Assembly (NCBI GenBank): GCA_030141605.1 | Contig: JAQGDQ010000183.1 | Span: 300,241-364,240 of the forward strand | Length of the DNA stretch: 64,000 nucleotides | From: Tubiluchus corallicola | Taxonomy: Eukaryota > Priapulida > Priapulimorpha > Priapulimorphida > Tubiluchidae | Direction of reading: 5' to 3' | Shown: piece by piece, positions 185 through 36,181 of the stretch | Layout: each line of letters starts with the position of its first letter | How positions within the stretch are numbered: the stretch's first letter is position 1 | Position numbers and translations under genes: made by a program | The notes under the pieces: generated by a model | Database searches by the model: none | What the model was told of the DNA's origin: nothing | The model's input: the letters and a program-made list of their open reading frames with translations, nothing else

Positions 185-380
185 CTGAAACTCGTTCTTA
201 AATTCTCCGTCTCTTCGTTTCCCAGTGACCACCTCTAAAAGTTTCGCAACCTCGATGGTAGTCTTGGTCGATGTTACGAACGCCACGTTTTCGTAAATGG
301 CCGCTCCATCTTCCTTCTCGTTGAGGTCTGCGCTTTCGGCAGTCGGAGACGATTCTGGCAACTGTCCATCCACCTGTATC
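185..380 (-). CDS. Receptor exon 15: juxtamembrane cytoplasmic tail
   Basis: 196 nt. Acceptor GTCGTGTACATAG at 381-382 takes phase 2 and gives KRIQVDGQLPE; the exon closes in phase 0 at CAG|GTTTGG, a weak donor. The tail has an acidic segment, the tyrosine motif IYENV, and then TIEVAKLLEVVTGKRRDG followed by EFKNEFQ, which resembles the helical wedge before the first PTP domain of receptor tyrosine phosphatases. Without the donor the frame stops eight codons later, giving a short-tailed receptor, so the downstream continuation is inferred. Confidence 0.62.
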
Positions 381-1696
381 CTATGTACACGACTTTTGTA
401 AGTTCAAAAGATCAACATCAGTGAGTAAAAAAGATACAAGGAGAAGATCAGGATCTGCCAGCGGGGTGATTAGTCTAGGGGTCAGTTGCATTTGACCCGT
501 CTTCTAAGAATAAGGGCGTCTTAACTACAGGAATGAGAATGACAAATTGCAAAAAACTCTGAAACAGGCCGGGGGTTTGGGGGCTGCGTAGGCCCCCACG
601 GGGGTTCAAGGGGCAAAGCAACAAATTGCAGTTTTGTGACCATAGAGAGCCCCTAAGTGGACTTAAAATATCAATTACCTTGTTTCATGCATAATTTAAA
701 ATACCCAACTATCAAAGATACATGATACCTAATTTTCTCAAAAACGCCTAAGTACTGGCCGCTCCTATGCAAAAGTATATAAAAACTGTCTGCAATTGAC
801 TCAAATAACTCCACACAATTGATTCTATATTTTAATACATAGAGATACACACGTGGTTACACTGATGTACGTGATGTAAACAAAGTGACGGCCTGCCAAC
901 TAGCGGTCAGCTTGCGAAATAATGTACTGGGTCCATAAAAATTTTCTCAACGAATTTAGGCGATTTACAAAAATGGCACTACTGGTCTTCCAAAAACTCA
1001 GAATTCCGCATATTCGCGGAAAATTCTCATCCCTGTAACTAGTGATGGGCAATTTTGAAATTTTCCTAATTAAATTACAATCTTGTTCTTGCAATTCTAT
1101 ATTACAATTAATCTTTCGCAGTAATTTTTTAGTGTTTTAGCCACATTTTTCAAACTTTGCAGGCCTGAAATCTATAAACTTCTTCATCACTGTCGGCCAT
1201 TTTCCTACTTACAAACTAATTTTTAGGGACACGCATCTTCATTAACTACTCTATTACTATGTCAACTACACACATCACATGAAAATGAATTTGAATTCCT
1301 CAGTTTGAAACACTGTGTTATTTTGATTTATATGTAATTATTAGTTTTGTTTTTGATGAGTTTAAATTTTCCATTTTGTTTGCTAATTTAAATTTTGTCT
1401 CTTCTCACAGCCAAATTTATTTACGGTTTCTAAATTTAAACTCATTTGAACTTGTTGCCTCATTTATTTTTATTTTATTTTTCTTTTGTTAAGTTGCTCA
1501 TTATTTTCATTTGTACACACCTTACTTGACAGGTCAGTTAATTTTCTTCAGTTTGGATAGGGGTGGTTGACTTGGTGACCCTTGGTCTTTTCGCCACCCC
1601 GTCTCTTTTCCGTCTTTATTTTAGTTTTTAGCTTTTGTTTATGTTTATTTTATAACATTCAGAGACAAATAAATTTTTTACTTACTTACTTACACA

Positions 1697-1730
<34 letters not shown>

Positions 1731-7700: not shown

Positions 7701-10700
7701 TCAAGGATACATGATACCTAATTGTCCCAAAAACGCCTAAGTACTGGCTGCTCCTATGCAAAAGTATATAAAAACTGTCTGCAATTGACTCAAATAACTC
7801 CGCACAATTGATTCTATATTTTTATACATAGAGATATACATGTGGTTACACTGATGTACGTGATGTAAAACAAAGTGACGGCCTGCCAACTAGCAGTCAG
7901 CTTGTGAAATAATGTACAGGGTCTGTAAAAAATTTCCTCAACGAATTTACACGATTTACAAAAATGGCACTACCGGTCTTCCGAAAACTCGGAATTCCGC
8001 GTATCCGAGGAAAATTCTCATCCCTGGTTTGCACATAGATATTAATTTTTCAATTTAGCCTTAATTAGGCCTGCCAGAAAAGACATTTCACATGCAAGTA
8101 AAGTCACATATTGCTCTTTCACTGCTTTGAATGATTAATAAGTGTAGCTATAGGCATGTCGATCAGTAGGACATATAATCAGTATAGTTTATTTATTAAT
8201 AACTTGTGTATCAGTTTCTAAAATGAGAAAATTATGAATACACATCAGCTGAACTTCAAGCAGGAATTTAGTAGCACACTGCAAGTAGTTACTGTTGTGT
8301 TTGTACCTGGTCTAATTAACATAATTATGTTCTAGCTAAAACAAAAATTAAAAGTTTTGTTAAACTGGTAACGTCAAAATCGCTTTACCATGGTAATTGT
8401 TGTCAGAGGCGAGTATGAAAAGTTCGAGTTCAATTCGAACACGTTTGTTTATTTTGAATTCGAATCGAACCTAAAACTATAGATTCGAATAATTCACCAC
8501 CTTCACGAGTACTATACTGTAAATAATCATTCTTTAGACAACACCTAAACAATCCGGTGTTGATACTGTTACAACTTCACAACAATGGCGACCGACAACC
8601 TGAAAAATGTACTCACCCTTCACCTCCGTTTCCACATCAATAGAGGTCCTCTTCCCCTCAACAGACTCCGACGAAGACATTCCCCAAACTTCGGCTCTGT
8701 ATTGTGAAGCACCACATAGTTCTCGTAGTACATACTCGGTTACGTTTGCACCAGTCTCTGCAACGAGCATCTGTAGATCATCGTCTTGACAGTCGGCAGC
8801 AGACGTTTGACGTAACGATACCCGATACCCTGTCACGTTGAGACCAGAGTCAGCGGGATGATTCCAAGTAAGCCTCTGATTCCCATCACCATCATCTTTT
8901 GTAACATCTAAATTTCTCACTGGCTTTATACCTTTTGAAGAAAACAGGCTCATGTCAGAATCCGTCTGTTGACTTTTATGCAAAGTACAATGTCTGCACT
9001 ACAATGATGACAGAAGCTGTCTGACAACGGTCAGAATCTGACCAAGATACAATGTCCACACTCCATACATGACACAAGCTGTTTGACAATGGTCAGAATC
9101 TGACCAAGATACAATGTCCACACTCCATACATGACACAAGCTGTTTGACAACGGTCAAAATTTGACCAAGATACAATGTCCACACTCCATACATGACACA
9201 AGCTGTTTGACAATGGTCAGAATCTGACCGAGATACAACATCCACACTCCATACATGACACAAGCTGTTTGACAATGGTCAGAATCTGACCAAGATACAA
9301 TGTCCACACTCCATACATGACAGAAGCTGTTATACAATGGTCAGAATCTGACCAAGATACAATGTCCACACTCCATACATGACACAAGCTGTTTGACAAT
9401 GGTCAGAATCTGACCAAGATACAACGTCCACACTCCATACATAACAGAAGCTGTTATACAACGGTCAAAATTTGACCGAGATACAACATCCACACTCCAT
9501 ACATGACACAAGCTGTTTGACAATGGTCAGAATCTGACCAAGATACAATGTCCACACTCCATACATGACAGAAGCTGTTATACAATGGTCAGAATCTGAC
9601 CAAGATACAATGTCCACACTCGATACATGACACAAGCTGTTTGACAATGGTCAGAATCTGACCAAGATACAACGTCCACACTCCATACATAACAGAAGCT
9701 GTTATACAACGGTCAAAATTTGACCGAGATACAACATCCACACTCCATACATGACACAAGCTGTTTGACAATGGTCAGAATCTGACCAAGATACAATGTC
9801 CACACTCCATACATGACAGAAGCTGTTATACAATGGTCAGAATCTGACCAAGATACAATGTCCACACTCCATACATGACACAAGCTGTTTGACAATGGTC
9901 AGAATCTGACCAAGATACAATGTCCACACTCCATACATGACAGAAGCTGTTATACAACGGTCAAAATTTGACCAAGATACAATGTCCACACTCCATACAT
10001 GACACAAGCTGTTTGACAATGGTCAGAATCTGACCGAGATACAATGTCCACACTCCATACATGACAGAAGCTGTTATACAACGGTCAAAATTTGACCAAG
10101 ATACAATGTCCACACTCCATACATGACACAAGCTGTTTGACAATGGTCAGAATCTGACCGAGATACAATATCCACACTTCATACATGACACAAGCTTTCA
10201 TACAATGGTCAGAATCTGACCAAGATACAATGTCCACACTCCATACATGACACAAGCTGTTTGACAATGGTCAGAATCTGACCAAGATACAATGTCCACA
10301 CTCCATACATGACAGAAGCTGTTATACAACAGCCAGAATCTGACCGAGATACAATATCCACACTCCATACATGACAGAAGCTGTTTGACAACGGTCAGAA
10401 TCTGACCGAGATACAATGTCCACACTCCGTACATGATAGAAGCTGTTTGACAACTGTCAGAATCTGACTGAGATACAATATCCACACTCCATACATGACA
10501 GAAGCTGTTTGACAACGGTCAGAATCTGACCGAGATACAATGTCCACACTCCATACATGACAGAAGCTGTTATACAATGGTCAAAATCTGACCAAGATAC
10601 AATGTCCACACTCCATAGCTGACACAAGCTGTTATACAACGGTCAAAATCTGACCAAGATACAATGTCCACACTCCATACATGACAGAAGCTGTTTGACA

Positions 10701-13700
10701 ACGGTCAGAATCTGACCGAGATACAATATCCACATTCCATACATGACAGAAGCTGTTTGACAACGGTCAAAATCTGACCGAGATACAACATCCACACTCC
10801 ATACATGACACAAGCTGTTATACAATGGTCAGAATCTGACCAAGATACAATGTCCACACTCCATACATGACAGAAGCTGTTATACAACGGTCAAAATCTG
10901 ACCAAGATACAATGTCCACACTCCATACATGACAGAAGCTGTTTGATAACGGTCAGAATCTGACCAAGATACAATGTCCACACTCCACACATGGCAGAAG
11001 CTGTCTGACAATGGTCAGAATCTGACCAAAATGCAACATCCATAGACGTCAGAATCTGACCGGAGAGGACATTGGATTTTGCTTGCCGACCAACATAAAG
11101 TCCGGACTATAGATGAGCACGGTTTGCCAAAGTCGTTACATTGAATAAATACACGTTTACAAGTATAAACAACAAACTGGCCATAAAATACAATATGAAA
11201 ACCAAAACACACCTGTAACCACTGGGAAATAATAATGCAACAGACTGTTTCTGTAGCAGTAAGCATTGAGCACGTGAAACCGGGCACTTAACTGCATTAA
11301 CAGAAAAGTGAACACTTAGAACTCTCCTACCTTAAATGTAAGAAAAGTTGTGCACATTTAGAACTCTCCTATCTGAAAGGTAAGAAAAGTTGTGCACACT
11401 TAGAACTCTCCTATCTTAAATGTAAGAAAAGTTGTGCACATTTAGAACTCTCCTATCTGAAAGGTAAGAAAAGTTGTGCACACTTAGAACTCTCCTATCT
11501 TAAAGGTAAGAAAAGTTGTGCACACTTAGAACTCTCCTATCTTAAATGTAAGAAAAGTTGTGCACATTTAGAACTCTCCTATCTGAAAGGTAAGAAAAGT
11601 TGTGTACACTTAGAACTCTCCTATCTTAAATGTAAGAAAAGTTGTGTACACTTAGAACTCTCCTATCTGAAAGGTAAGAAAAGTTGTGTACACTTAGAAC
11701 TCTCCTATCTTAAATGTAAGAAAAGTTGTGTACACTTAGAACTCTGCTATCTGAAAGGTAAGAAAAGTTGTGCACACTTGGAACTCTCCTATCTGAAAGG
11801 TAAGAAAAGTTGGGTACACTTGGAACTCTCTTATCTGAAAGGTAAGAAAAGTTGTGTACACTTGGAACTCTCCTATCTGAAAGGTAAGAAAAGCTGTGTA
11901 CACTTAGAACTCTCCTATCTGAAAGGTAAGAAAAGTTGTGCACACTTAGAACTCTCCTATCTGAAAGGTAAGAAAAGTTGTGCACACTTAGAACTCTCCT
12001 ATCTTAAATGTAAGAAAAGTTGTGCACACTTAGAACTCTGCTATCTGAAAGGTAAGAAAAGTTGTGCACACTTAGAACTCTCCTATCTGAAAGGTAAGAA
12101 AAGCTGTGTACACTTGGAACTCTCCTATCTGAAAGGTAAGAAAAGTTGTGTACACTTGGAACTCTCCTATCTGAAAGGTAAGAAAAGCTGTGCACACTTA
12201 GAACTCTCCTATCTGAAAGGTAAGAAAAGCTGTGTACACTTGGAACTCTCCTATCTGAAAGGTAAGAAAAGTTGTGTACACTTAGAACTCTCCTATCTGA
12301 AAGGTAAGAAAAGTTGTGCACACTTAGAACTCTCCTATCTGAAAGGTAAGAAAAGTTGTGTACACTTAGAACTCTCCTATCTGAAGTGTAAGAAAAGTTG
12401 TGCACACTTAGAACTCTGCTATCTGAAAGGTAAGAAAAGTTGTGTACACTTAGAACTCTCCTATCTGAAAGGTAAGAAAAGTTGTGAACACTTAGAACTC
12501 TCCTATCTGAAAGGTAAGAAAAGTTGTGCACACTTAAAACTCTCCTATCTTAAATGTAAGAAAAGTTGTGTACACTTAGAACTCTGCTATCTGAAAGGTA
12601 AGAAAAGTTGTGCACACTTAGAACTCTCCTATCTGAAAGGTAAGAAAAGCTGTGTACACTTAGAACTCTCCTATCTGAAAGGTAAGAAAAGTTGTGCACA
12701 TTTAGAACTCTCCTATCTGAAAGGTAAGAAAAGTTGTGCACACTTAGAACTCTCCTATCTTAAATGTAAGAAAAGTTGTGCACACTTAGAACTCTCCTAT
12801 CTTAAATGTAAGAAAAGTTGTGTACACTTAGAACTCTCCTATCTTAAATGTAAGAAAAGTTGTGTACACTTAGAACTCTCCTATCTTAAATGTAAGAAAA
12901 GTTGTGTACACTTAGAACTCTCCTATCTGAAAGGTAAGAAAAGTTGTGAACACTTAGAACTCTCCTATCTTAAATGTAAGAAAAGTTGTGCACACTTAGA
13001 ACTCTCCTATCTGAAAGGTAAGAAAAGCTGTGTACACTTAGAACTCTCCTATCTGAAAGGTAAGAAAAGTTGTGCACATTTAGAACTCTCCTATCTGAAA
13101 GGTAAGAAAAGTTGTGCACACTTAGAACTCTCCTATCTTAAATGTAAGAAAAGTTGTGCACACTTAGAACTCTCCTATCTTAAATGTAAGAAAAGTTGTG
13201 TACACTTAGAACTCTCCTATCTTAAATGTAAGAAAAGTTGTGTACACTTAGAACTCTCCTATCTTAAATGTAAGAAAAGTTGTGTACACTTAGAACTCTC
13301 CTATCTGAAAGGTAAGAAAAGTTGTGTACACTTAGAACTCTCCTATCTTAAATGTAAGAAAAGTTGTGCACACTTGCAACTCTCCTATCTGAAAGGTAAG
13401 AAAAGTTGTGTACACTTAGAACTCTCCTATCTGAAAGGTAAGAAAAGTTGTGAACACTTAGAACTCTCCCATATGAAGTGTAAAATACATACCACCTGCT
13501 ATAGTAGTAATGAATGAAGCTTTGCTTTTATCACTCCAGCCAACTTTGTTGTTGTATCTCACAGTGAACGTGTAATTAGTAAAGAATTCCAATTTCTTCA
13601 CTTCATATTCTGTTCTAGTGCCTGCTTCCACAAAACCGGGCTTTGCGCTTGAGTCCTCTTCATTTCTGTACTCGATGCGGTAAATAATTTCTTTATCACA

Positions 13701-16700: not shown

Positions 16701-19700
16701 TACGAAAGGCCCTCCAGAACAAATTAATTTTGTATCTCGAGGTATCACTGTAGTCATAGTAGACCAATTTTTTTAAGTCATAAGTCATTTATTTCACATT
16801 ACACATTTACAATGGTTACATATACAATATCTAGTGAAAGGGCCTACAATGAACGTAATACAAATAAGAAATACTGCACAGGAAAAGCCTCAAACACTGT
16901 TCACTTATACACGAAGGTAAATGTGTTGCGGACAATCAGAAAGCAGGGCTTGTTAGATTGTCCCACACAGTGATAGAAATCGTGAGATGGCCACTCAAAT
17001 GACATTCACAGCAATTTAATCGTCAAGTACAAAACTACACTTTCACTCTCAATTACTCAGCTAAACTACAATCCAAATCGGAAATAACAAAAAATACCAA
17101 AACTGAGTATTTTACATACCGTTGTTAGTTTGATAAACGCTATAATGCTCTCTTCCACCGCAGAAGTCAAAACTGTTTATCGTAGAACTTCTGCCAGTAA
17201 ATGACACTCCACAAGCAACATCACAGTTTGTGTCATCAACTTCTGAAGTAAACACCGTTTCCATTCCACATTTGCATTCATTATAGCGAGTCAAAACAGC
17301 AAACAGGAATCCTACAACATTCAAAACACTTGAAAATTTAAAACTCAATCAGAACTCTGTAAAGACTTATAAAACCAATTAAGACTTGCAAACAAAGTAT
17401 CTAGCAACTACAAATTATATGTTTATGCTTATCACAATGTTATTAGCTGTAGTTACCTTCTGAATTGCAATAAGAAACACACATCCTTGAAGACATAGTC
17501 TGCAATTGAAGGGTACTAGACTCATCCAGGAAATAATTCTGTCCTGCTGGATAACATCCACTACCAAGTTTTGTTCCAGCTAAAGGCACTAAACATTCCA
17601 CAAAACATTGTACTGTTTAAAAATTCAAAAATAGAGTTTTTTACTCAGTGTATATACAATTAGGTAAAATGTCAAAATAAATTATGTGCAGGGATGAGAA
17701 TGACAAATTGCAAAAAATTTTGAAACAGGCCGGGGGTTTGGGGGCCGCATAACCAGCAACAAATTGCAATTTTGTGATCATAGAGAGCCTCTAAGTGGAC
17801 TTAAAATATCAGTTACCTTGTTTCATGCATAATTTAAAATACTCAACTATCAAGGATACATGATACCTAATTGTATCAAAAACGTCTAAGTACTGGCCGC
17901 TCCTGTGCAAAAGTATATAAAAACTGCCTGCAATTGACTCAACTAACTCAGCACAATTGATTCTATATTTTTATACATAGAGATCTACACGTGGTTACAC
18001 TGATGTACGTGATGTCAACAAAGTGACGGCCTGCCACCTAGCAGTCAGCTTGTGAAATAATGTCGGGTAATAAGGTCCGTAAAAATTTTCTCAACGAATT
18101 TACGCGATTTACAAAAATAGCACTACTGGTCTTCCAAAAACTCGGAATTCCGTGTATCCGTGGAAAATTCTCATCCCTGTTTGTGTTTACAAGAGCACAT
18201 CAACAAGTTGTTTTCAATTTTTTGTACTTGTTTGAAGAACTGCTCAGTTTTGGCTGTGGCCTCATGCGCACCTAAGAGTGAAGTTAGCGAATGATGCATT
18301 CAAACACGTATACTCCGAATAAGCCAATTAAACAAGGCGATAGGTATCGCATGTACCTCAAACGCACTCGCATTTAAAATAAAACATCGTGTAATTAAAA
18401 TCAAACTCTGATGCAAACAACCAACACAAGCCATTTTATGGTTGACTCGCTTTAACAAAAGGAAGCGAGTTCTGTTAACAAATTAATGTTCAATATTTAA
18501 GACAAACTAACACAGCATAAACTTCTAATTCAGCAAAAATAAATTGCACTGTACATTGCCTCTACTGCTGGTGCATGCTGGGATTGCGTGTCTCTGGCAA
18601 CATGGCAGCTTCCCTTTCACTGATATAGGTTATTTAAATGCAAAGAATTCTCTTTTTTACTAACACCAGCCTTAAAAGCAAGTAAGAGTGATGCTAAATC
18701 GATATAACATCGTTATTGCTGTATTTTTAGTGTCATTTTCCCCGGTCATGTGCAGTAATATGTTCATCTGTTGCAGTTTACTTAAATACGAATTGTAATG
18801 ACAAACAAACAACTATGCACAAAAAAAAATGAAAAAAACTATGATTTAATTAATATGGCCGTGGATACATGAATTCTGAATTAGTGTGTATGTTGTCGTG
18901 CTGGTGTGATGGTGTTTCATATCTGGTTAATATTAGTGATTTCAATTTTGTTTTAAATGCTGATAGGGACTTGATTTGTTTAACCTGTAATGGTAGAGAA
19001 TTCCAAAGTAGAATTGCTCGTAACTATCAGCCATTTATACAGCACCGTATGCACTGAAGCACTTAATAATATCAATTGTGAATGATCGTTTTCCTATTGT
19101 TGCATAAATTGTCTGACTTTATCGTTTGAAATAATTTATGGTAGCGTCTAAAAACAGTTTATCATTATAGTGTCGTTGAAAAATGTATCATATCGTTATT
19201 GCATCGCCAAATTTGTATCGTTAAAACAAACTTACAAGAAGTAGGATATACTTCTAGAGCCCATCCACCACCACATGTTTTACATAGCGAGTCGTACAAA
19301 TTGCACGTCTCTCCGTTACTGCCACATCTTCTGTTACATGGATTTTTAGCGGGTAAGTGGCGTCCATAAGTATGTCCACAGTAACATCCACCTCCGTGCT
19401 CTAATCCAGCAAATGGGAAACTTTGCCTTGCGCAGTAATCCTTGCAAGTCTCTGGATTATTAACATTTCCACTTCTTTGATCTGGCATGTCTCTTGGTCC
19501 TGCATCCCCATGTCTATTACGATCTTTGTCTTCCCAACAACCCAAATTGTCCGTCAGGATATTAAATTCTGGAACATAATACAATAACATCCAGCCTGTA
19601 ATGCAACATGCTTACTATACATGTATTATAACATGTAAACGTCGACTATGAAAATCGTACTTACAAAACAGTAAACTTGATCAATTCTTCTACTTCAAAT

Positions 19701-21290
19701 TAATCAAGAAATATCTGCAAATTTACGAGAGCACTGTCCTGTACCATTCTCCCCTACCATAACGTCCTGAAAACACTTCTCCTGTAGCTGTATCTTTACA
19801 CCAATCTCTACTACAGTGCAGAAACCAAAACCAATGCAAGTGGCATAGCTAAGGCGGTGGAGGGGAATACAGAGCATCGACTGTGCCACAAGCTCTAGAT
19901 ACGCCACTGTTAAGTAATAGTTAGGTGTGCATATAATTGACAAACTGTTTCGTTTTTAACCTTGACAAAGTTGTCTTGTTTTGCATAAAAGTGGCATTTA
20001 TTATTCTCTTGACTTTTAGCACTTCAACAGCAATAGCCAATCAATCACTCAATGCATATTATTGAAAAAAAAAGAAACAGTATAGGTAAAAAAACGTTGA
20101 TGAAGTCAAATTAACCAAATAAAAGAGTTGCAGTATGACACATTGAAAGCTTGGCTTGTTAGGGTGGCAGAAATGAGTGAATGAAAGAATGGTTAGGGTC
20201 AGAAGAAATGATGGAATGGAAAAAAATAGTAAGATTAGGGATAGGAAGAAGGAAAAGAGGAGAAGAAACGACCACAGTGTATGTTTAATTTACATAGAGC
20301 TATATTAAAATAGCATTATAATTGATTGGAGGCCATATATTGCGACTGCATGAGACATGGAACCACTAAAATTGTATTATAAGTATGAATCAAAAATGGT
20401 CCTTTTCACGTACTTTTTGAAACTAAAAATAGTTTTGTGTATTTTTACTTGGGTACTTATTTTATTCCAGTTATTGGGGGCTGTGAATTTAATAAAGTGC
20501 CTGGCACTATTAGTACGACAGTAAGGGACATGATATTCATTGAACCTTGTAAAGTAATGTTTAGGATTTGCTGTAATGGGATTTGCAAAGGAAGTGGGAA
20601 ACAAGTTGTAGTATGTCTTATATATACAAGTGATATATAAACAAGTCTTCGAGAATTATTATATCACATTCAGTAATACTATGGTTGCTTACTCTCTGTA
20701 TAGTACACGGAGACGGCATTTTCTCCCGGACAAATTAAGTCAATTCCATCACATGGTTTACAGTTCGTTGAAAACCTGTCATACGGATATCCATTGCCAC
20801 ATCTGCAGACGTAGTTGCCATTAGCGTCATTGGAGATACTGCCGAAATAATAGCCTGCATCTCTGCATAATGTTCTACACTGAACGTGCAATTTGGGTTG
20901 ATCTAGAACTTTCTTCACAGGAAAATAAGACTCAGGTGCATAATACTGGAAGCATCCTTTATGATACCAGTAGTGGGGAGCTAAAAGAAAAACCATATTC
21001 AGCTTGTTACTGTCACTAAATTTAAAATCAAGTTCGACCAGATGGTTTAGTCTAGTGGTAATGCATCTGCTTTCCGTCTGGGAGGTCAAGAGTTCGAACC
21101 AGCGGCCAGGGCATACCAAAGACTTTAAAAATGGTACCTGCTGTTACCCTGCCTGACGCGTAGTATTTTATTGTAAAAGTGGGGTAATAATAGTCTCTGT
21201 TATGTAGTTGTAAGTTGTTATTTACAGTCGGCGATAATAGCTCTTTGAGCTAATGTTAATTGTTGACCCAAAAGCCGACTTTAAATGAAG

Positions 21291-21343
<53 letters not shown>

Positions 21344-24300: not shown

Positions 24301-27300
24301 GACATGGGTCTAACTAGACATTTAGTAAACAAACTGAATGTAAACCAAACTAGAGTTCCAACAGTTGATAAACTTTCTCTCTTCTTTAATGGACATTTAG
24401 TGCCAGCACTCAGGAATTCCTGCCTTTAGTTCCTCTGCATCAAATTGCCCTGTGCGACCCTTGTACATTTTTTCTTTAAAGCACAAGAAACCTTTCACTG
24501 ACATAAAGCATAAAAAATCGTCTCGAAATTTGATACGACTTACATACTACCTTTTCGTATACAGGGCTTGCATCGGCCATAACGCTGTATAAAACGTGTA
24601 AATTTAAACTCCCGCGATGACCGTTAGGCGCAGCCATTTTAAAGGTAAGTTGTTTGAAACAAGTTTTGATAACATTAAGTAAAGTTTGAAAAAATAATCA
24701 GAGTATTCGTAGCATGCATGTTGCTAATTAAGTAAAATTTTAAATTACTGTATTTTATCAATAAGATTAAAAATACGTTTTTGGGTGAGTCAGCGACATT
24801 TTACCAATCGACACGAGCATTTTAAATTATTAGTCTAGTTATATAAGTGTTTCCAGCAGATAAGTGAAATGCTAAGTAATATAGATTTGCACGGAAAGTT
24901 TTTTGGGTCATAATTTAACATCGCCTTTTCTTCCATTGATTTACGTGGCGTAGTGACGTCTTGTACTGGCGCCGTCGCAACAGTATTGTGGGAGATTTAA
25001 AATGAAAACAAACAAAAATTCCTTTCAACGCGAGTATGATATGTGCATAAAATTGTTGTAAAGTACTATAATTCTTTACGGGAATTTTGCTGAAAACTAC
25101 TTCGGGTGCCCCTTTTCTTATTCTTTAAAGGAATGCCAGGCACAGTAATAGCATTGTTCTGGCATTTAAATTTTTGGTAAAAACATATTGGCCATGTCTT
25201 AAGGGCTAATAAATAAAACTATAAAGTTGCAACTTCCAAAATCAAAACTAATGTATTTTAATATAATGCCTTTAAATTTCAACTTTGTGAAGCGCTTGTT
25301 TCGAATATTAGTCTAAGCTTCAGCATATTCCCCAGCGCCACCCAATGTATTAGCAGTAAAAACTTGACATTAACAATCACCCAAATCTTAAATGCACATT
25401 TAAACTAAATTTAGACAGTTCAGACACATGTAAAAGTGTAAAACATCAAGTAAGTAAGTAAATAAGTAATTTATTTGTCTCTAAAAAAATAAATGTAAGA
25501 AAAAAAGTAAAATAAAACATAAAAGAGACAGAAGTTCCATTGAGAAGAAGTTAAATCTATAGACAAGAAAATTGCTGCAAATCTGTCTTTGATCAATGGA
25601 GTTAAAGGACAAGAAAAGGGGCACCTGAAGTAGATTTCAGAAAAATCGCCTTAAAAAATTATACTACTTTACAGCAATTTTATGCACATATCGTATTTGT
25701 GTTGAAAGGAATTTTCATTTGTTTTCATTTTAAATCTCGCGCAATATTGTGCCGACGGCGCCATTACATGACATCACTAAAATACGTAAATCAGGGGAAG
25801 AAAAGGCAATGTTAAATTATGACCCAAAAAAACTTTCCATGCAAATCTATATTACTTACCATTTCACTTACCTGCTGGAAACACTTATGTAACTAGAGTA
25901 ATCATTTAAAATGTTTGTGCCAGTTGGTAAAATGTCGCTGACTCACCCTCCAGGGTGCGTCACTCACTAGCCAAAAACGTATTTTTAATCTTATTGACAA
26001 GATACAGTAATTCAAAATTTTACTTAATTAGCAACATGTATGCTACGAATGTTCTGATTATTTTTTCAAACTTTACTCAATGTTATCAAAAACTTGTTTC
26101 AAACGACCTACTATTAAAACGGTTGCGCCTGACGGTCATCGCAGGAGTTTAAATTTACACGTTTTATACAGCATTACGGCCGATGCAAGTCATGCATGCA
26201 AAAAGGTAGTATGTAAGTGGTATAAAATTTCGAGACGAATTTTTTAAGCTTGATGTAAGTGGAGGGTTTTCTTGTGCTTTAAATATACTTGAGACTGATA
26301 ATTAAAGTTCATTCAAAACTATAATTACATGTGTAATATGCTTATATGTTGAGCATCAGATTTAATGTTCTATTTAAATCTATAAATTCAACTTACATCC
26401 AGTGTCATACACAGCATTAGCTTCACTACTTCCGCAGAAAAACTCGTTATAACAATCTCTGCAGTCTGTGGAACGTCCCAATCTGCCGTAACTGTTACCA
26501 CAACTACAACTGTCCTGCCCTATACCAGCAAATGGAAACCCGTCATTCAGACAAGCTTCTACACAATTATTCGGATGATTTCCCTGAAGGGATCTTGGAA
26601 CTGCAGGAAGATCTGATTCAGTATCACGCAGGGCAGTGAAACAACCTTGGTATTCATATTCTGAAAAACAATACAACTACTGATTTACGATTCTTATGTG
26701 CTCACACACTCCGTTCAACTTCGGGTCTAAGTAAAAGCTGATGAGTGGTAAATAATGAAAAATAAACATTAGCTAGAAAAAGGTTTCCAAAGAAACCAAA
26801 TATTAAGCCACTTGAATACAAAAATAAATAGCATCACGAAATAAAAAAGTAAATTAACTTTATAAAACTGAGGATTCCAAACATAGTTTTAAAGTGTGGC
26901 CTCTGACCCTTTTTACTTCAGGTAGTGGATTCTCTGTTGTAGCAAAATGCAATAAAACAGTCAACATTAATTATTATTATCATTTATTTATTATTATTAT
27001 TATTATTACTATTATTATTAAAAGTCAAATTCAGGACAATTCGTCAAGCAAAAAAGTTGTACCCAGGGTTTGCTCTGCACACTAATCACAACAGAATAGC
27101 AGGAAATGATCCGTGACTTCCACATTTAAGTTGACACAAATGTTTAGCCCTACCAGATGCGTGTCACCTGGTCAACAGTTTAATTTATTTAAATTTTAAG
27201 ATGTTTATTACGAAATTTGAAAATCAACTAAATATGGGATATATTTTGGGTATCTTTGAAAGGTCAGTAAGGGACAGGGGGCAAAATTATCAAATATGGG

Positions 27301-28974
27301 ACATGTCCCATATATATAAGGGACGTTTGGCAAAGACATCGAGAGAGAACAAGGGCAAGATAGAAACAGATATTATTGTGACACCTTACGACATAAGAAC
27401 ATTTATTTTCTCCAATTAGTTTGACATAAAATTTTTTTAAATATTACGTAATTATTATCGTGGGGCAGGGCAGGTAAGGACCATAGGGTCATCTAGTCTC
27501 CTGCCCTTTCTTGTAAATAGATTAGTATATTAAAATTAAATGGTGATGCTGCAGCTAACAAAAACAAAAAACATATAAGAAAATAATATTATTAATAATA
27601 AAAACAGTATAAATGATACAGAATGTCTTATCTTGTTCTACTACAGGCCAGGTTTAGCTTGCATACTCTGACCTTGTGTGAAAGCATAATTCTAAAAATA
27701 ATCGGTACAAGGAGAATAGTTAGGACGGTTAAATGAATATGAAAACTTGGGATCTGAGACGATTACCTGCAAATGGCAAAAACTCGTTGACAAAAATAAT
27801 TTATTCAGTGGTAATACGAAACGTTTCATGTTTCAGACTACTGAAACTTAGTAATGGATGGGCTTGAACAAGCAAGTTGCTAACGGATTACGACGCTATC
27901 AAATTCACCAAGAAAACGCGAATTTTGATCTTACAAAATTTACGGCGAAATCAAACACGTGACTAATCTTCATAGGATGTGGTGCCATCTACAATGAAGA
28001 ATGGGAAATGAGAGAGAGCGAGCGAGAGAGAGAAATTCAGAGGTAGAGATGAGTGAAAGTTACAGATAGTTAGTGTTGCCCGAATACAAAATTAAAAATA
28101 CAGGACTCGTAAAATTTCTCTCTATGTTACTATATATATATACAAATTTATTAGACCAATATGTTATATAAAAGTAAAGAAATAAGTTAAAAACATTAGG
28201 CAAGGACTTTAATGGCTTATGACGAAAACAGAAATAAAATCATTTGAAAATTACTCAATATAAGCAACATAGACAACCAAGTTAAATTCCGAGAAAGTGA
28301 AATCATTGCAAAATTCTTATTCCATAGAGACAATATAAAAATGTAAAGAAAGATCATTTTGAAAATTATTATTTAATACAAAAAATAAACTAAAATCTTG
28401 TTTCATATGGAAAATGTGAAAAGAAACAAAACTGAGAAACTGATATGCAAAATTTTCCTGGTTAGATTTGGTTCTTTTCATCGAGTGAATCTGAGAAAGG
28501 AAAATATAATTACTTATAGAGTTACAACTAAGAACCGTAAAAAGGTAGCAAACATAATTATATTTTTATTACGAAATGTGTAAATGAACTAAATATGGGA
28601 CATTTGGATGTGCTTGAAACGTCAGTAAGGGACGGGTTACAAAATTATCAAATATGGTACAAGTCCCATATATAAGGGACGTCTGGCAAAGAGATAAACA
28701 GAGAGCAAGACAGAAGCAGATATTACTGTGAAAACTTAACACTTTGAATGATAATACTGACTACTTGCTTGTTCTAAATTATGTGAAAAGTTTCCTGTGG
28801 GCTCAACCTGTACGCAGTATTATTAGCTATAAGGAAGTCACCTAGTTACCATTCTGATCATAATTTTTGATGGATTAGTTCCTCAAAATAAATAAAAATT
28901 TACATACCAGGAACAGCATGGGAATTTTCGATCAGAACACGGACCATGAACAAGTAAACACCGAGCGTCCACAT
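185..28974 (-). CDS. WSC-FN3 receptor, probable receptor-type tyrosine phosphatase (3' incomplete)
   Basis: Hand-assembled gene of 15 visible exons whose phases all join without a break, totalling 3,147 nt (1,049 codons). Order: signal peptide; five WSC domains (cysteine-rich, carbohydrate-binding family); four FN3 domains; one transmembrane helix; a cytoplasmic tail of about 65 residues. The protein should be a type I plasma-membrane receptor. The tail ends with a helix-like stretch followed by GEFKNEFQ, which resembles the juxtamembrane segment of receptor tyrosine phosphatases just before the PTP domain; that assignment is inference, because the catalytic part would lie left of position 1. 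The tail also has YENV, a possible Grb2-type pYxN site. Exons 2-7 and the single-exon FN3 domains are phase 1-1, the classic arrangement for domain shuffling. The introns are full of transposons and satellites. Alternatives are another single-pass receptor or a receptor with a different cytoplasmic enzyme. Confidence 0.8.
528..1035 (+). mobile_element. MITE family A, copy 1 (hAT-like)
   Basis: 508-bp non-coding element with terminal inverted repeats CAGGRATGAGAAT. The flanks share TAACTA. It is one of five copies in the receptor introns, and the copies are about 90% alike by eye. Confidence 0.85.
1400..1742 (+). mobile_element. Probable LINE 3' UTR with TTAC/CTTG tail
   Basis: T-rich stretch with GTCTCTTTTCCGTCTTTATT and AGAGACAAATAAATTTTTTA, then (TTAC)n(CTTG)n(TTAC)n. 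The same tail occurs in reverse at 25441-25545. No coding part is seen. Confidence 0.5.
1979..2412 (+). mobile_element. MITE family D, copy 1 (hAT-like)
   Basis: 434 bp, ends CAGGGGTGTGCAAA / TTTGCACACCCCTG, with a perfect 8-bp duplication CACTACAT. The interior carries GGGCCGC-rich stretches. The termini are of a type seen in hAT elements of many animals. Located in the last visible receptor intron. Confidence 0.9.
3400..3720 (-). mobile_element. Possible LINE 3' UTR
   Basis: On the minus strand a pyrimidine-rich region is followed by (CGATAA)n-like repeats and ends AATAAACTAAAAAAAAACT, resembling a retrotransposon 3' end. Weak evidence. Confidence 0.35.
3990..4753 (+). mobile_element. Tigger/pogo-like element family H, copy 1 (interrupted)
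   Basis: Shares its body with 43650-44310 (TTTGAGTTAGGCGA motifs, TTTTTGTGGGAAAAAC, GATTTTGAGTTA) and ends GGAGTTCACTG|TA. The left end is blurred. It is interrupted by the family B element at 4261-4591. Confidence 0.65.
4261..4591 (+). mobile_element. Tigger/pogo-like MITE family B
   Basis: 331 bp with long termini CAGTCGACCCTCGTTAAACC / GGTTTAATGAGGGTTGACTG flanked by TA on both sides. Start CAGT plus TA duplication fits Tc1/mariner-Tigger elements. It is nested in the older element 3990-4753. Confidence 0.85.
4944..5031 (-). CDS. Receptor exon 14: transmembrane segment
   Basis: 88-nt exon, phase 1 to 2. Acceptor ATTCATGTTTCAG, donor AAGAG|GTGATT. It encodes a 26-residue apolar run starting ALIIGAIVGVIVALL and ending VFLCKR, a single-pass helix followed by a basic stop-transfer. 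The reading frame is fixed by joining to exon 13; other frames of the same DNA are shadows. Confidence 0.85.
5132..5642 (+). mobile_element. MITE family A, copy 2 (hAT-like)
   Basis: 511 bp with ends CAGGGATGAGAAT / ATTCTCATCCCTG and a perfect 8-bp target duplication TTTTTTAC. The 8-bp duplication points to the hAT superfamily. No coding capacity. Confidence 0.9.
5721..6798 (+). mobile_element. Possible Tigger-like element, interrupted
   Basis: Left end CAGTACATCCTCACTTAACG and right end (inverse) CACTGAGTCCTCGCGTAATG are alike and bordered by TA on the right. It is interrupted by MITE family C. The interior is not recognised. Confidence 0.4.
5756..6151 (+). mobile_element. MITE family C, copy 1 (hAT-like)
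   Basis: 396 bp with ends TAGGGATGAGCAT / ATGCTCACCCCTA and a perfect 8-bp duplication ACGACCGT. Both ends are dense in TTCGAA/TTCGAATT motifs, so the single strand folds strongly. It appears nested in a Tigger-like element. Confidence 0.88.
6884..7183 (-). CDS. Receptor exon 13: FN3 domain 4
   Basis: 100-codon single-exon FN3 domain, phase 1-1. Acceptor ATTTTTTGTAG, donor GACA|GTAAGA. It begins APTGPPSGLNSEATESS, then ITISWLAPECCKRNG, ITAYKYEL, YRFQVWAVNEKGEGP and SEEVVVEFET. This is the best FN3 match in the gene and the last domain before the membrane. Confidence 0.9.
7503..8026 (+). mobile_element. MITE family A, copy 3 (hAT-like)
   Basis: 524 bp with the same termini and a perfect 8-bp target duplication GTTTGCAC on both sides, inserted in the intron between the receptor exons for FN3 domains 3 and 4. 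Confidence 0.9.
8404..8500 (+). mobile_element. MITE family C, left-end fragment
   Basis: About 95 bp resembling the left end of family C (GAGCAT changed to GAGTAT, then the TTCGAA-rich part and AAAACTATAGATTCGAATAA). Truncated; no right end is seen. Confidence 0.7.
8617..8931 (-). CDS. Receptor exon 12: FN3 domain 3
   Basis: 105-codon single-exon FN3 domain, phase 1-1. Acceptor CTGTTTTCTTCAAAAG, donor AAGG|GTGAGT. It reads GIKPVRNLDV ... RLTWNHP, GYRVSLR, TEYVLREL and YRAEVWGMSSSE, all FN3 landmarks. The 62-bp minisatellite ends about 55 bp upstream of its acceptor. Confidence 0.87.
8988..11065. repeat. 62-bp minisatellite, about 33 copies
   Basis: Unit of 62 bp containing ACAATGTCCACACTCCATAC, (A/T)GACA(C/G)AAGCTG and the palindrome GGTCAGAATCTGACC. 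From about 9290 to 10150 two unit types alternate (124-bp dimers), and within this a 248-bp four-unit block recurs. It lies in the receptor intron between exons 11 and 12. The short reading frames in it come from the repeat and are not genes. Confidence 0.95.
11308..13481. repeat. 42-bp minisatellite, about 51 copies
   Basis: Unit GAACTCTCCTATCTGAAAGG + TAAGAAAAGTTGTGCACACT + TA. Because 42 is divisible by 3, stop-free frames of hundreds of codons exist on both strands (579 codons on plus) but without an ATG start. A nine-unit, 378-bp higher-order block is repeated at about 12630-13010 and 13010-13390. The array ends about 12 bp from the donor of receptor exon 11. Confidence 0.95.
13493..13724 (-). 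CDS. Receptor exon 11: FN3 domain 2, second half
   Basis: 232 nt, phase 0 to 1. Acceptor TTGCTGTGCAG, donor CAGGTG|GTATGT. It includes IIYRIEYRNEED, TEYEVKKLEFFTNYTFTVRY and KVGWSDKSKASF, a clear FN3 C-terminal half (the Y-x-Y-x-V pattern and the G-W/S turn). The 42-bp minisatellite starts about 12 bp inside the following intron. Confidence 0.83.
14413..14498 (-). CDS. Receptor exon 10: FN3 domain 2, first half
   Basis: 86-nt exon, phase 1 to 0. Acceptor TTTTCATTTTAG and donor GAG|GTAAAA. It reads EPLHSVSPPQLSTRK ... AVVNVKFE, a proline-led strand A and a strand B of alternating hydrophobic residues, where VNVKFE takes the place of the usual V-x-W. It fits the same split as FN3 domain 1 and restores the phase for exon 11. 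Confidence 0.65.
14827..15061 (-). CDS. Receptor exon 9: FN3 domain 1, second half
   Basis: 235 nt, phase 0 to 1. Acceptor TTTTGTATTCCCAG is followed by LPNPAGFRVYISESG and later YECILRNLKLGVSYTTAVAV, the C' to G strands of an FN3 domain. An alternative in-phase acceptor at 15104 would add 14 residues. Donor GGTG|GTAAGT. Confidence 0.78.
15205..15875 (+). mobile_element. Terminal-inverted-repeat element family E, copy 1
   Basis: About 670 bp. Both ends carry GTTTTACAYGTCAAATGTAG in inverse orientation, flanked by TATA. Each end is a ladder of short repeats of the type TCAAATGTAGACTTAGG / TTCAAATGTG. In a receptor intron. Confidence 0.8.
16062..16150 (-). CDS. Receptor exon 8: FN3 domain 1, first half
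   Basis: An 89-nt exon inferred from sequence and phase. Acceptor TACTTTGTTTCAG takes the single base left by exon 7 (phase 1), and donor TTAGA|GTAAAT leaves phase 0, as the next exon requires. It reads AYPYLKEKPIVAELGAFFAK followed by MTW, which looks like strands A and B of an FN3 domain with the conserved tryptophan. The short length makes it the least certain exon together with exon 10. Confidence 0.6.
16312..16750 (+). mobile_element. Tigger/pogo-like MITE family F, copy 1
   Basis: 439 bp with ends CAGTGGAACCTCAACTTACG / TATCTCGAGGTATCACTG, TA on both sides. Inside is the shared stretch AGAATACGAATCGGGCTTCG. Lies in the intron between receptor exons 7 and 8. Confidence 0.88.
16760..17010 (-). 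mobile_element. LINE 3' end, second copy
   Basis: Reverse-complement copy of 50650-50875, including the TAAGTCATAAGTCATTTATT tail and the CCCACACAGTGATAGAAA block. In a receptor intron. Confidence 0.6.
17120..17311 (-). CDS. Receptor exon 7: WSC domain 5, second half
   Basis: 64-codon exon, phase 1-1, with acceptor ACATTCAAAACA...GTTGTAG and donor AACG|GTATGT. It reads GFLFAVLTRYNECKCGMET ... CGGREHYSVYQTNNG. The FAVL...ECKCG block matches the central F.G...CxCG segment of WSC domains. Exons 6 and 7 together give a domain of 105 residues. Confidence 0.78.
17457..17579 (-). CDS. Receptor exon 6: WSC domain 5, first half
   Basis: 41-codon exon that has no long open frame of its own. The acceptor is GTGCCTTTAG and the donor CAGAAG|GTAACT, phase 1-1. 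It reads SGTKLGSGCYPAG ... MCVSYCNSEG, the N-terminal half of a WSC domain (GC motif and CxxxC pair). It joins in frame to the exon at 17120-17311, which supplies the second half. Unlike WSC 1-4, this domain is split by an intron. Confidence 0.72.
17689..18179 (+). mobile_element. MITE family A, copy 4 (hAT-like)
   Basis: 491 bp with family A termini. It lacks about 30 bp of the GC-rich stretch near the left end, and no clear target duplication remains. Confidence 0.85.
18840..19060 (-). mobile_element. LINE ORF2 C-terminal relic
   Basis: The minus strand reads RAILLWNSLPLQVKQIKSLS then AFKTKLKSLIL, the WNxLP...FKxxLK pattern at the end of non-LTR retrotransposon ORF2. Stops upstream show that it is dead. 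In a receptor intron. Confidence 0.7.
19236..19568 (-). CDS. Receptor exon 5: WSC domain 4
   Basis: 111-codon exon, phase 1-1. The acceptor is TATGTTCCAG and the donor TTCTT|GTAAGT. It contains LGCWEDKD, RDMPD, CKDYCARQSFPFAGLE, CYCGHTYG and ALEVYP. This is the most typical WSC domain of the five. Confidence 0.88.
20090..20630 (-). mobile_element. LINE ORF2 C-terminal relic plus 3' UTR
   Basis: Minus-strand frame 20377-20604 reads VPYCRTNSARHFIKFTAPNN followed by WNKIS...FSFKKYVKR, the C-terminus of a non-LTR ORF2. A pyrimidine-rich 3' region follows down to about 20090. In a receptor intron. Confidence 0.65.
20693..20980 (-). CDS. Receptor exon 4: WSC domain 3
   Basis: 96-codon exon, phase 1-1. 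The acceptor is TTTCTTTTAG and the donor ACAGAGA|GTAAGC. The landmarks are HKGCFQYY, CRTLCRDAGYYFG, CRCGNGYP and AVSVYYT. It fits the family well and keeps the expected cysteines. Confidence 0.85.
21035..21345 (+). mobile_element. tRNA-derived SINE with (TTA)n tail
   Basis: The head has a box A-like TGGTTTAGTCTAGTGG and a box B GAGTTCGAACC, as in RNA polymerase III tRNA promoters. A body of about 190 bp follows, ending AAGCCGACTTTAAATGAAG and a (TTA)n run of about 50 bp. It is not a functional tRNA: the acceptor stem does not close. In a receptor intron. Confidence 0.82.
21293..21345. repeat. (TTA)n microsatellite
   Basis: Tail of the tRNA-derived SINE at 21035. Confidence 0.9.
21620..22315. 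repeat. 115-bp direct repeat flanking a MITE
   Basis: CTCTTAGTGAAAACYTGCAG ... AATAAAA(A/C)GACCTAATTGCAAC occurs at 21620-21734 and 22200-22315 with about 90% identity. MITE family A copy 5 fills the gap exactly. Confidence 0.85.
21735..22199 (+). mobile_element. MITE family A, copy 5 (hAT-like)
   Basis: 465 bp with family A termini and small internal deletions. It sits exactly between two direct copies of a 115-bp intron sequence (21620-21734 and 22200-22315) rather than between a short target duplication. Confidence 0.85.
22738..23179 (-). mobile_element. hAT-like element, family K, second copy
   Basis: About 440 bp sharing both ends and a minus-strand frame (22919-23137, containing CQLQRSTTVRDKEKLVNFQY) with the copy at 42838. 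No target duplication is visible. It lies in the intron between receptor exons 3 and 4. Confidence 0.8.
23750..24088 (-). CDS. Receptor exon 3: WSC domain 2
   Basis: 113-codon exon, phase 1-1, with acceptor ATTTCAG and donor GGAG|GTAATT. It contains FRGCWHF, NCIEKC, CYCGEKW and AVAVYD, all WSC landmarks. It is longer than WSC 1 because of a basic insert around KKSRRKS before the central strand. Confidence 0.85.
24480..25124 (+). mobile_element. TTAA-flanked DNA transposon, copy 1
   Basis: 645 bp flanked by TTAA on both sides, ends AGCACAAGAAA and AGAATAAGAAAAGG (inverse). TTAA duplication is typical of piggyBac and Kolobok elements. No long open frame. Paired in opposite orientation with the copy at 25616. 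Confidence 0.8.
25125..25615. other. Spacer between inverted transposon copies, with LINE-like 3' end
   Basis: 491 bp. It contains (GTAA)n followed by TTTATTTGTCTCT, the reverse complement of the tail at 1660-1740, so a LINE or SINE 3' end with a TTAC tail lies here on the minus strand at about 25441-25545. Nothing else is recognised. Confidence 0.5.
25616..26278 (-). mobile_element. TTAA-flanked DNA transposon, copy 2 (inverted)
   Basis: 663 bp flanked by TTAA, with termini AGGACAAGAAAA / AGCACAAGAAAA. It is the reverse complement of the copy at 24480 over its whole length, so the two form a large inverted repeat with a spacer of about 490 bp inside one receptor intron. Confidence 0.82.
26397..26660 (-). 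CDS. Receptor exon 2: WSC domain 1
   Basis: 88-codon exon, phase 1-1. The acceptor is TTTTTCAG and the donor GGAT|GTAAGT. The translation runs from EYEYQGCF through FPFAGIG and CSCGNSYG to AVYDTG, the standard WSC order of cysteines and glycines. It completes a codon with the last base of exon 1 and supplies the first base of a codon to exon 3. Confidence 0.85.
26965..27022. repeat. (TTA)n microsatellite
   Basis: A run of TTATTA with few interruptions. No SINE head was found upstream. Confidence 0.85.
27197..27400 (+). repeat. Dispersed repeat L, copy 1
   Basis: About 200 bp sharing TTATTACGAAAT, CAACTAAATATGGGA-like, AGTAAGGGAC and CCCATATATAAGGGACGT with 28563-28735. The core GTCCC...GGGAC is palindromic. 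Probably an old transposon remnant in the first receptor intron. Confidence 0.55.
28563..28735 (+). repeat. Dispersed repeat L, copy 2
   Basis: Second direct copy of the sequence at 27197-27400, about 1.35 kb apart, with scattered substitutions. Confidence 0.55.
28908..28974 (-). CDS. Receptor exon 1: signal peptide
   Basis: ATG at 28974 opens a 22-codon peptide beginning MWTLGVYLFMVRVLI and ending near SHAVP, a hydrophobic signal peptide with a plausible cleavage region. The donor is CCTG|GTATGT, phase 1, which matches the phase-1 acceptor of the first WSC exon. A tandem array of about 190-bp units begins immediately upstream, in the presumed 5' UTR/promoter. Confidence 0.7.
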
Positions 28975-35506: not shown

Positions 35507-36181
35507 GCTTCCAAACTACCCAAAGTCTAACCTAAACGACAATTTTCAACATACTTCCTTGAAGTTAACGTAGTTCCACAAATGATACCGTGGTCGTTCC
35601 ACGTTTGCTTTCACGCATTTAGAAATAATCATGAAACATTTAATCCAACTGCGATAGACCAAACTAACGTCGTACAACCTTACATTCGGATGTGACAACT
35701 TAAAATAATTCCAAAAACCATAAAATTGAAAGACTTATGTGATTCGGCAGTATGGGACATCATGGGGGTAGCACGACAGTGACTGCGAAACCTCCGTTGC
35801 TATTTCTCAAAGAGCAGTACACTGGTGTTGGATCAGTTGGCTTGCGTATCAAGTTTGGCCAGATAGATATCAGCGGGAAATGCATAATACAATTTTGGTA
35901 GCTCGTAAAACGTGGCTTTTAGAGCAGCAATCAGTTTTTATTAAAAGGAAAATCTATAGGAGATGATTTCCAAGCAACTGTGCCAGTAGCCACTATACTA
36001 ACCAGCATACTATTGTTAACAAAGCCATCAATGTACCACATTACGTGATGACACCAGACAGCCCTGATATCACAAAAACGATGGCAACAACAACAACAAC
36101 AAAGACAAGAATAACAGCAGCGGCAACAATAATAACAATCACAGCAACAACAACAATGACTACCACAATGACAACACTACC

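What the first reader, a model, noticed from the sequence alone, without database searches (positions are those of the whole stretch)
185..28974. Receptor that joins five WSC domains, four FN3 domains and a phosphatase-like juxtamembrane tail
The reading frame is continuous over 15 exons, and 9 of the 14 visible junctions (the WSC exons and single-exon FN3 domains) are phase 1-1 boundaries, so the architecture rests on more than isolated similarities. WSC domains are known from yeast stress sensors, polycystin-1 and Kremen; FN3 domains are the usual ectodomain of receptor tyrosine phosphatases. I know of no standard vertebrate receptor with WSC-WSC-WSC-WSC-WSC-FN3x4-TM-(PTP). If the enzyme domain is confirmed, this would be a cell-surface phosphatase with putative sugar-binding modules at its tip.
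Basis: partly seen in the sequence, partly recalled or inferred. Interest (0 to 1): 0.8.

Follow-up and report, generated by a model that had tools for sequence, protein, structure and literature searches.

The report
Phosphatase receptor with WSC-domain tip
An animal genome carries a cell-surface tyrosine phosphatase receptor whose outer tip is built of five WSC domains, a module otherwise known from yeast stress sensors and Kremen, and the missing enzyme half was found just outside the window.

Summary
On the minus strand, 15 GT-AG exons (28974 to 185) splice to 1060 aa without a stop: signal-peptide-like start, five WSC, four FN3, one transmembrane helix, juxtamembrane tail. The tail alone gave no evidence of a phosphatase (3422 of 20,000 shuffles scored as well). 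The window's own contig settled it: the next minus-strand exons, 2.3-13.3 kb beyond the window edge, continue the frame and encode a complete PTP domain (Pfam Y_phosphatase 7.5e-78; WPDHDVP, HCSAGIGRTG), followed by exons of a degenerate second one (2e-37). In the same genome C1039 has the same WSC5-FN3x4-TM-PTP order, its nine ectodomain units being reciprocal best matches by position (9 of 9 each way). C2203 shares the ectodomain order but its phosphatase part looks degenerate; C1992 fits by position only. That is four of about 25 PTP clusters. So: a small receptor phosphatase family with a WSC tip, a new variant of a known kind. Nine full-text searches listed no description of it, mostly judged from listings. 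Ligand, transcript and organism are unknown.

The parts
28908..28974 (-). exon 1: start codon and signal-peptide-like start (MWTLGVYLFMVRVLIENSHA...), ends phase 1
   Evidence: sequence read, GT donor; no signal-peptide predictor was run
26397..26660 (-). exon 2: WSC domain 1
   Evidence: Pfam WSC 38.2 bits; best match to WSC1 of C1039 gene
23750..24088 (-). exon 3: WSC domain 2 (not recognised by Pfam, cysteine frame kept)
   Evidence: low-confidence model whose top, non-significant PDB match is the yeast Wsc1 sensor domain
20693..20980 (-). exon 4: WSC domain 3 (Pfam 15.0 bits, below cut-off)
19236..19568 (-). exon 5: WSC domain 4
   Evidence: Pfam WSC 41.9 bits; Kremen1 WSC in the PDB, E 2.1e-5
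17457..17612 (-). exon 6: WSC domain 5, first part
   Evidence: WSC5 recognised when spliced, 41.4 bits
17120..17311 (-). exon 7: WSC domain 5, second part
16062..16150 (-). exon 8: FN3 domain 1, first part (weakest exon of the model)
   Evidence: best of two phase-1 to phase-0 candidates in 17110-15065, acceptor 5.0, donor -1.4; adds nothing to the Pfam score
14827..15061 (-). exon 9: FN3 domain 1, second part
   Evidence: Pfam fn3 17.6 bits, below the cut-off of 25; 17.8 spliced
14413..14498 (-). exon 10: FN3 domain 2, first part
   Evidence: one of three overlapping candidates of the splice scan, chosen by FN3 likeness; raises Pfam fn3 from 29.9 to 34.1 bits when spliced
13493..13724 (-). 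exon 11: FN3 domain 2, second part
   Evidence: Pfam fn3 29.9 bits, 34.1 spliced
8617..8931 (-). exon 12: FN3 domain 3
   Evidence: Pfam fn3 25.3 bits
6884..7183 (-). exon 13: FN3 domain 4
   Evidence: Pfam fn3 45.9 bits
4944..5031 (-). exon 14: transmembrane helix (TALIIGAIVGVIVALLIIIAVVLVFLCKR)
   Evidence: sequence read
185..380 (-). exon 15: juxtamembrane tail with a YENV motif, ends ...FKNEFQ in phase 0; joins the first PTP exon at contig C1714:297892 (outside the window)

Best explanation
This is a single-pass receptor tyrosine phosphatase. Five WSC domains (PAN-like, disulphide-rich) form an outer ligand-binding tip, four FN3 domains form a stalk, one helix crosses the membrane, and a catalytically equipped PTP domain (D1) followed by a degenerate second one (D2) lies inside. 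Shown by sequence: the domain order, the continuous frame from start codon through D1, the complete D1 catalytic motifs, and the same order in a paralogue read whole. Inferred: ligand binding at the WSC tip changes receptor clustering or access to substrates and so alters removal of phosphate from tyrosines near the membrane; D2 regulates; the YEN motif in the tail, kept in three of three genes read, is a phosphotyrosine docking site.
For: 15 exons in one frame; seven further exons to residue 1346 without a stop, phases matching at every join; Pfam Y_phosphatase 7.5e-78 over the full 234-position profile; solved RPTPs are the best PDB matches, RPTP-alpha first at 2.7e-127; D2 pieces 2e-37. C1039: five WSC, four FN3, TM, tail and seven D1 exons in the same order, 9 of 9 ectodomain units best-matching the same position both ways. 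C2203: same ectodomain order, TM, tail and PTP-like exons. WSC exon upstream on the same strand at a further PTP locus, C1992.
Against: No transcript data. WSC2, WSC3 and FN3-1 miss the Pfam cut-offs. The AlphaFold model of WSC2 is poor (mean pLDDT 57.1) and its match to Wsc1 is not significant (E 0.37). D1 has KNRF where solved RPTPs such as alpha and CD45 have KNRY; activity was not measured. No signal peptide exon was identified in C1039 or C2203. At C2203 the PTP region looks degenerate (WPLEAA in place of WPD; no convincing match to the last two D1 exons). A near-copy of the ectodomain on C2110 gave no FN3-4, TM, tail or PTP match, though one search scored only 47 of 265 candidates; the ectodomain may also exist without the enzyme.
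Confidence: 0.93

Rival explanations
1. Two neighbouring genes: a WSC-FN3 cell-surface protein and a separate phosphatase, joined only by this model.
For: No RNA evidence; the TM to tail intron is about 4.6 kb and the ectodomain near-copy on C2110 gave no PTP match.
Against: The tail exon ends in phase 0 exactly where the first PTP exon begins, giving [11 protein letters not shown]...ENRKKNRF as in solved RPTPs; C1039 keeps the whole order and C2203 the order up to a degenerate PTP part.
Confidence: 0.04
2. An inactive or adaptor-like receptor: the PTP domains are present but do not work, and the WSC/FN3 ectodomain acts only in adhesion.
For: D2 has WDLD in place of WPD; the C2203 paralogue has WPLEAA; Tyr to Phe in KNRF.
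Against: D1 of the window gene has WPDHDVP, HCSAGIGRTG and VQNADQY; C1039 D1 has WPDHGVP and SAGVGRTG.
Confidence: 0.1
3. A pseudogene or assembly chimera.
For: Large introns with minisatellites and a dispersed repeat; partial near-copy on C2110.
Against: No stop in 1346 codons over 22 exons and canonical splice sites throughout; a diverged paralogue with the same order and a second with the same ectodomain.
Confidence: 0.02

Closest known systems
Receptor tyrosine phosphatases with FN3 ectodomains and two PTP domains (LAR/PTPRS/PTPRF; PTPRA and PTPRE for the cytoplasmic part)
   Same: FN3 stalk, single TM, active-looking D1 and weaker D2; best PDB matches of D1 are RPTP-alpha, sigma and LAR
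   Different: Tip is five WSC domains; as recalled, LAR-type tips are Ig domains. Two LAR-like genes (by inspection) exist separately in this genome as single open frames
Amphioxus BbLcLRR (LRR plus WSC, single TM, inhibitory receptor)
   Same: Animal single-pass receptor with a WSC domain (called putative carbohydrate binding) that lowers tyrosine phosphorylation (passages of PMC8211107)
   Different: Recruits separate phosphatases (SHIP1, SHP1/2) through tyrosine motifs; carries LRRs, one WSC domain and no PTP or FN3 in the domains named there
Kremen1/2
   Same: Extracellular WSC domain; WSC4 matches Kremen1 WSC at 2.1e-5
   Different: Kringle-WSC-CUB with a cytoplasmic tail of 60-75 residues (passages, PMC5014086)
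Yeast Wsc1-type cell-wall stress sensors
   Same: WSC domain at the tip of a membrane-spanning sensor (passages, PMC9024836); weak match of WSC5 to 7pz2, E 0.025
   Different: One WSC domain; no FN3 and no phosphatase (recalled)
Polycystin-1
   Same: Animal membrane protein with a WSC domain (recalled)
   Different: Otherwise unrelated architecture; not compared here

Membership tests
Receptor protein tyrosine phosphatase | Secretory start, ectodomain, single TM, cytoplasmic PTP domain in one frame | tested here: met
   (signal peptide and TM by inspection)
Receptor protein tyrosine phosphatase | PTP signature C-x5-R with WPD loop and Q loop in D1 | tested here: met
   HCSAGIGRTG, WPDHDVP, MVQNADQY; Pfam 7.5e-78
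Receptor protein tyrosine phosphatase | N-terminal segment before D1 resembling other RPTPs | tested here: inconclusive
   profile of 11 PDB segments: 3422 of 20,000 shuffles score as well and 253 of 2059 window ORFs score above it; with D1 attached the alignment to RPTP-alpha begins inside the tail, at query residue 46 of 353
Receptor protein tyrosine phosphatase | Phosphatase activity | not testable with these tools
   needs an enzyme assay
LAR type (Ig plus FN3) | Ig domains at the tip | tested here: not met
   no Ig-family match above its curated cut-off in the spliced protein; the tip is WSC
WSC-domain protein | Pfam PF01822 above the curated cut-off | tested here: met
   WSC1, WSC4 and spliced WSC5 pass; WSC2 and WSC3 do not
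WSC-domain protein | Conserved cysteine framework | tested here: met
   seven cysteines invariant in five of five domains
FN3 stalk | Four fn3 domains above the curated cut-off | tested here: inconclusive
   FN3-2, FN3-3 and FN3-4 pass; FN3-1 scores 17.8 against 25 but best-matches FN3-1 of C1039
Kremen | Kringle and CUB domains | tested here: not met
   no Kringle or CUB match up to E 0.1

The most novel reading that the evidence does not exclude
A family of animal receptor phosphatases whose WSC tips recognise foreign or self glycans, so that contact with microbes or other cells directly switches tyrosine dephosphorylation: a recognition system wired to a phosphatase. The genome also holds many other WSC genes (85 WSC matches, 12 of them on one contig, C1831) from which tips could have been drawn.
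Probability: 0.2. Interest if true: 0.75.

Novelty: new variant of a known kind. Interest (0 to 1): 0.52.

Why it matters
It adds a new type of ectodomain to receptor tyrosine phosphatases. The ligands of many RPTPs are poorly known, and a WSC tip points to testable candidates (beta-glucans, other glycans, Dickkopf-like proteins). The conserved order in more than one gene shows that the combination is old enough to have duplicated and diverged, so it is unlikely to be a one-off fusion.

Tried and rejected
(1) Tail as proof of a phosphatase: an 11-sequence profile of RPTP pre-D1 segments gave the tail -0.5 bits; 3422 of 20,000 shuffled tails scored as well, and 253 of 2059 window ORFs scored above the tail's ORF. 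phmmer of the tail against the PDB gave only chance hits (E 1.2 and 3). The verdict rests on the D1 exons instead.

(2) An extra exon at about 2590-2440 in an open frame: its phase does not fit between TM (phase 2) and the tail, and the TM to tail join is in phase without it; the sequence beside it resembles a transposon end (recalled).

(3) Naming the organism: exact scans for a dispersed repeat of the window in genome contigs and viral contigs found nothing; a relative search with the WSC part in genome contigs gave 7 pattern matches, none confirmed. That it is an animal is my reading from its genes.

(4) Literature: nine searches were answered. Searches asked for WSC together with a phosphatase term: 18, 19 and 30 found none, 24 found 15 papers, 68 found one. 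Of these 16 I opened one by passages (PMC8211107: an LRR-WSC receptor that recruits phosphatases); the other 15 I judged from title and start of abstract only. Passages of three more papers were read. The library lacks most subscription papers and no protein database of eukaryotes was available, so automatically annotated proteins of this architecture may exist.

(5) Structure of WSC2: low confidence, no significant match.

(6) Cytoplasmic exons at the C2110 near-copy: none among the matches listed; the DNA itself could not be fetched.

(7) WSC exons near other PTP clusters: a WSC profile found none in the 9.9-kb stretches; C1039's WSC exons are in the upstream pieces fetched later. On C1765 the WSC match is about 100 kb away. 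On C1992 two further WSC matches lie on the downstream side of PTP exons and do not fit the pattern.

Full report
WHAT WAS CHECKED. The minus strand of the window from 28974 to 185 was read exon by exon. Fifteen exons join with GT-AG borders throughout into 1060 codons without a stop. The order is signal-peptide-like start, WSC1-5 (WSC5 split over two exons), FN3-1 and FN3-2 (each split), FN3-3, FN3-4, transmembrane helix, juxtamembrane tail. Pfam on the spliced protein gives fn3 at 3.8e-29 and WSC at 6.8e-25, three passing stretches each. Taken alone, WSC1 and WSC4 pass the cut-off, WSC3 does not (15.0 bits), WSC2 is not recognised, and WSC5 passes once its two exons are joined (41.4 bits). 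The five domains share 12 invariant columns, seven of them cysteines. FN3-2 rises from 29.9 to 34.1 bits when its first exon is added; FN3-1 stays below the cut-off of 25 (17.6, then 17.8), so its first exon is unproven.

IS THERE A PHOSPHATASE? From the window alone this could not be decided. The tail ends TIEVAKLLEVVTGKRRDGEFKNEFQ, which looks by eye like the stretch before D1 in receptor phosphatases. A profile of 11 segments taken from PDB alignments gave it -0.5 bits, and 3422 of 20,000 shuffles of the tail did as well or better; the tail has no meaningful PDB match. A genome search for PF00102 placed the window at G000:C1714:300241-364240 and showed PTP matches just to its left on the minus strand. 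The DNA was fetched and read. Seven exons follow in phase: contig 297892-297805, 297492-297419, 295206-295075, 291481-291362, 289209-289052, 288671-288536 and 287097-286948. The joined protein is 1346 residues without a stop. The first joins read [43 protein letters not shown]. Motifs: DYINASFVDG, AAQGP, DFWRMIW, KCDQYWP, WPDHDVP, HCSAGIGRTG, VQNADQYVFIY. Pfam Y_phosphatase: 7.5e-78 over positions 1-234 of 234. The best solved matches are RPTP-alpha, sigma and LAR. Further left lie exons of a second PTP domain, Y_phosphatase 2e-37 on the joined pieces (positions 42-219 of 234). It has WDLD in place of the WPD loop; read by hand across its exon join, HCYDGATRCG keeps C-x5-R. It is probably a regulatory D2; its first and last exons were not modelled. 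Its exon borders fall at the same places as in D1 by eye.

PARALOGUES. Of about 25 PTP gene clusters (my grouping of the 74 matches), 20 stretches of 9.9 kb were fetched, then the rest of contig C1039 and part of C2203 upstream. C1039, whose 29,406 bases were read whole, carries five WSC, four FN3, a TM-like helix (one of several hydrophobic stretches, chosen by place), a tail with VYENY, and matches to all seven D1 exons in the same order on one strand; no signal peptide exon was matched. Each of its nine ectodomain units is the reciprocal best match of the unit at the same position in the window gene, 9 of 9 both ways. C2203 has the same five WSC and four FN3 units, a TM-like stretch and a tail with VYENV, but its PTP region looks degenerate: WPLEAA in place of WPD, an exon piece in a tandem array, and no convincing match to the last two D1 exons in the stretch held. 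At C1992 a WSC match lies upstream of PTP exons on the same strand; this is by position only, and two other WSC matches there lie on the downstream side. So four of about 25 clusters show the pair; ectodomain regions of the others were not read beyond the fetched stretches, in which a WSC profile found nothing. By arithmetic (85 WSC matches in 343.5 Mb, about 25 PTP clusters, 30 kb upstream, same strand), about 0.1 such neighbours would be expected by chance, against three besides the window gene.

RESULTS AGAINST. A near-copy of the ectodomain, WSC1 to FN3-3, lies on C2110:1513525-1529742: nine matching stretches, eight at 77-96% identity and one (FN3-1) at 57%, where the window gene itself scores 65 because the alignment runs past the exon. 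No FN3-4 match is listed there (47 of 265 candidates were scored) and no TM, tail or PTP match (67 of 67 candidates scored, 100 of 100). The ectodomain may therefore also exist without the enzyme, or as a broken copy. No transcript reads were available. The AlphaFold model of WSC2 has mean pLDDT 57.1, and its top PDB match, the yeast Wsc1 sensor domain, has E 0.37, which is no proof.

HOW IT PROBABLY WORKS. Shown: architecture, in-frame D1 with the catalytic motifs named above, conservation of order. Inferred: the WSC tip binds a ligand. Passages of PMC9024836 report a beta-glucan-binding fungal WSC lectin and the PAN/Apple fold of WSC; passages of PMC5014086 show Kremen's Kringle and WSC contacting the protein DKK1. 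Either kind of ligand is possible. FN3 domains act as stalk; binding changes clustering or substrate access; D1 removes phosphate from tyrosines; D2 regulates. The YEN motif in the tail is present in three of three genes read and fits a pY-x-N docking site (recalled motif); this is a guess.

COMPARED WITH WHAT IS KNOWN. It is a receptor tyrosine phosphatase by the sequence features that could be tested, save the tail segment, which was inconclusive. It is not LAR-type (no Ig match above cut-off) and not a Kremen (no Kringle or CUB). A useful comparison is amphioxus BbLcLRR, an LRR-WSC receptor that lowers tyrosine phosphorylation, probably by recruiting phosphatases (passages of PMC8211107); here the phosphatase is built in. 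Nine answered full-text searches listed no paper whose title or abstract start describes WSC domains on a receptor phosphatase; few of the listed papers were opened. The library is partial and no eukaryote protein database was at hand, so the claim of novelty is limited to that.

VERDICT. It is a new ectodomain variant within a well-known enzyme class, present as a small family. Interest is moderate to good, and would rise if the WSC tip proved to recognise glycans.

Noticed in passing
window 33590-35515 (-): COP1 ubiquitin ligase (RING plus WD40) in a single open frame of 642 codons, matching residues 102-731 of the 731-residue COP1 chain in the PDB (E 1.6e-256).
   Followed up: partly
window 45914-47560 (-): MFS transporter resembling SLC22 and SV2 proteins in a single open frame of 549 codons.
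   Followed up: partly
G000 C1543 and C1923 (L001-L004): Two LAR-like receptor phosphatases (by inspection) lie in single open frames of 1922 and 1920 aa; with COP1 and the transporter this hints at several large intronless, perhaps retroposed, genes in this genome.
   Followed up: partly
window 8986-11036 and 11308-13477: Two minisatellites (62 bp x 33 and 42 bp x 52) fill most of the intron between FN3-2 and FN3-3; the second is open as a 738-aa frame on the plus strand.
   Followed up: no
window about 500-1140, 5140-5600, 7500-8050, 17640-18200, 21650-22250: A dispersed repeat of roughly 600 bp occurs five times in the window, each time in an intron of this gene.
   Followed up: partly
G000:C2110:1513525-1529742: Near-copy of the ectodomain without listed FN3-4, TM or phosphatase matches.
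   Followed up: partly
G000:C1831:410675-484156: Cluster of WSC exons (12 of the 85 WSC matches), 42-51% identical to WSC4 in the ten listed, with no PTP match on that contig among those listed.
   Followed up: no
L028 (C2203, about 99.3-100.3 kb): A piece of a PTP exon (GGITVRCNLPIKRSKYYDIRILEVANIYNVR...) is repeated many times in tandem.
   Followed up: no
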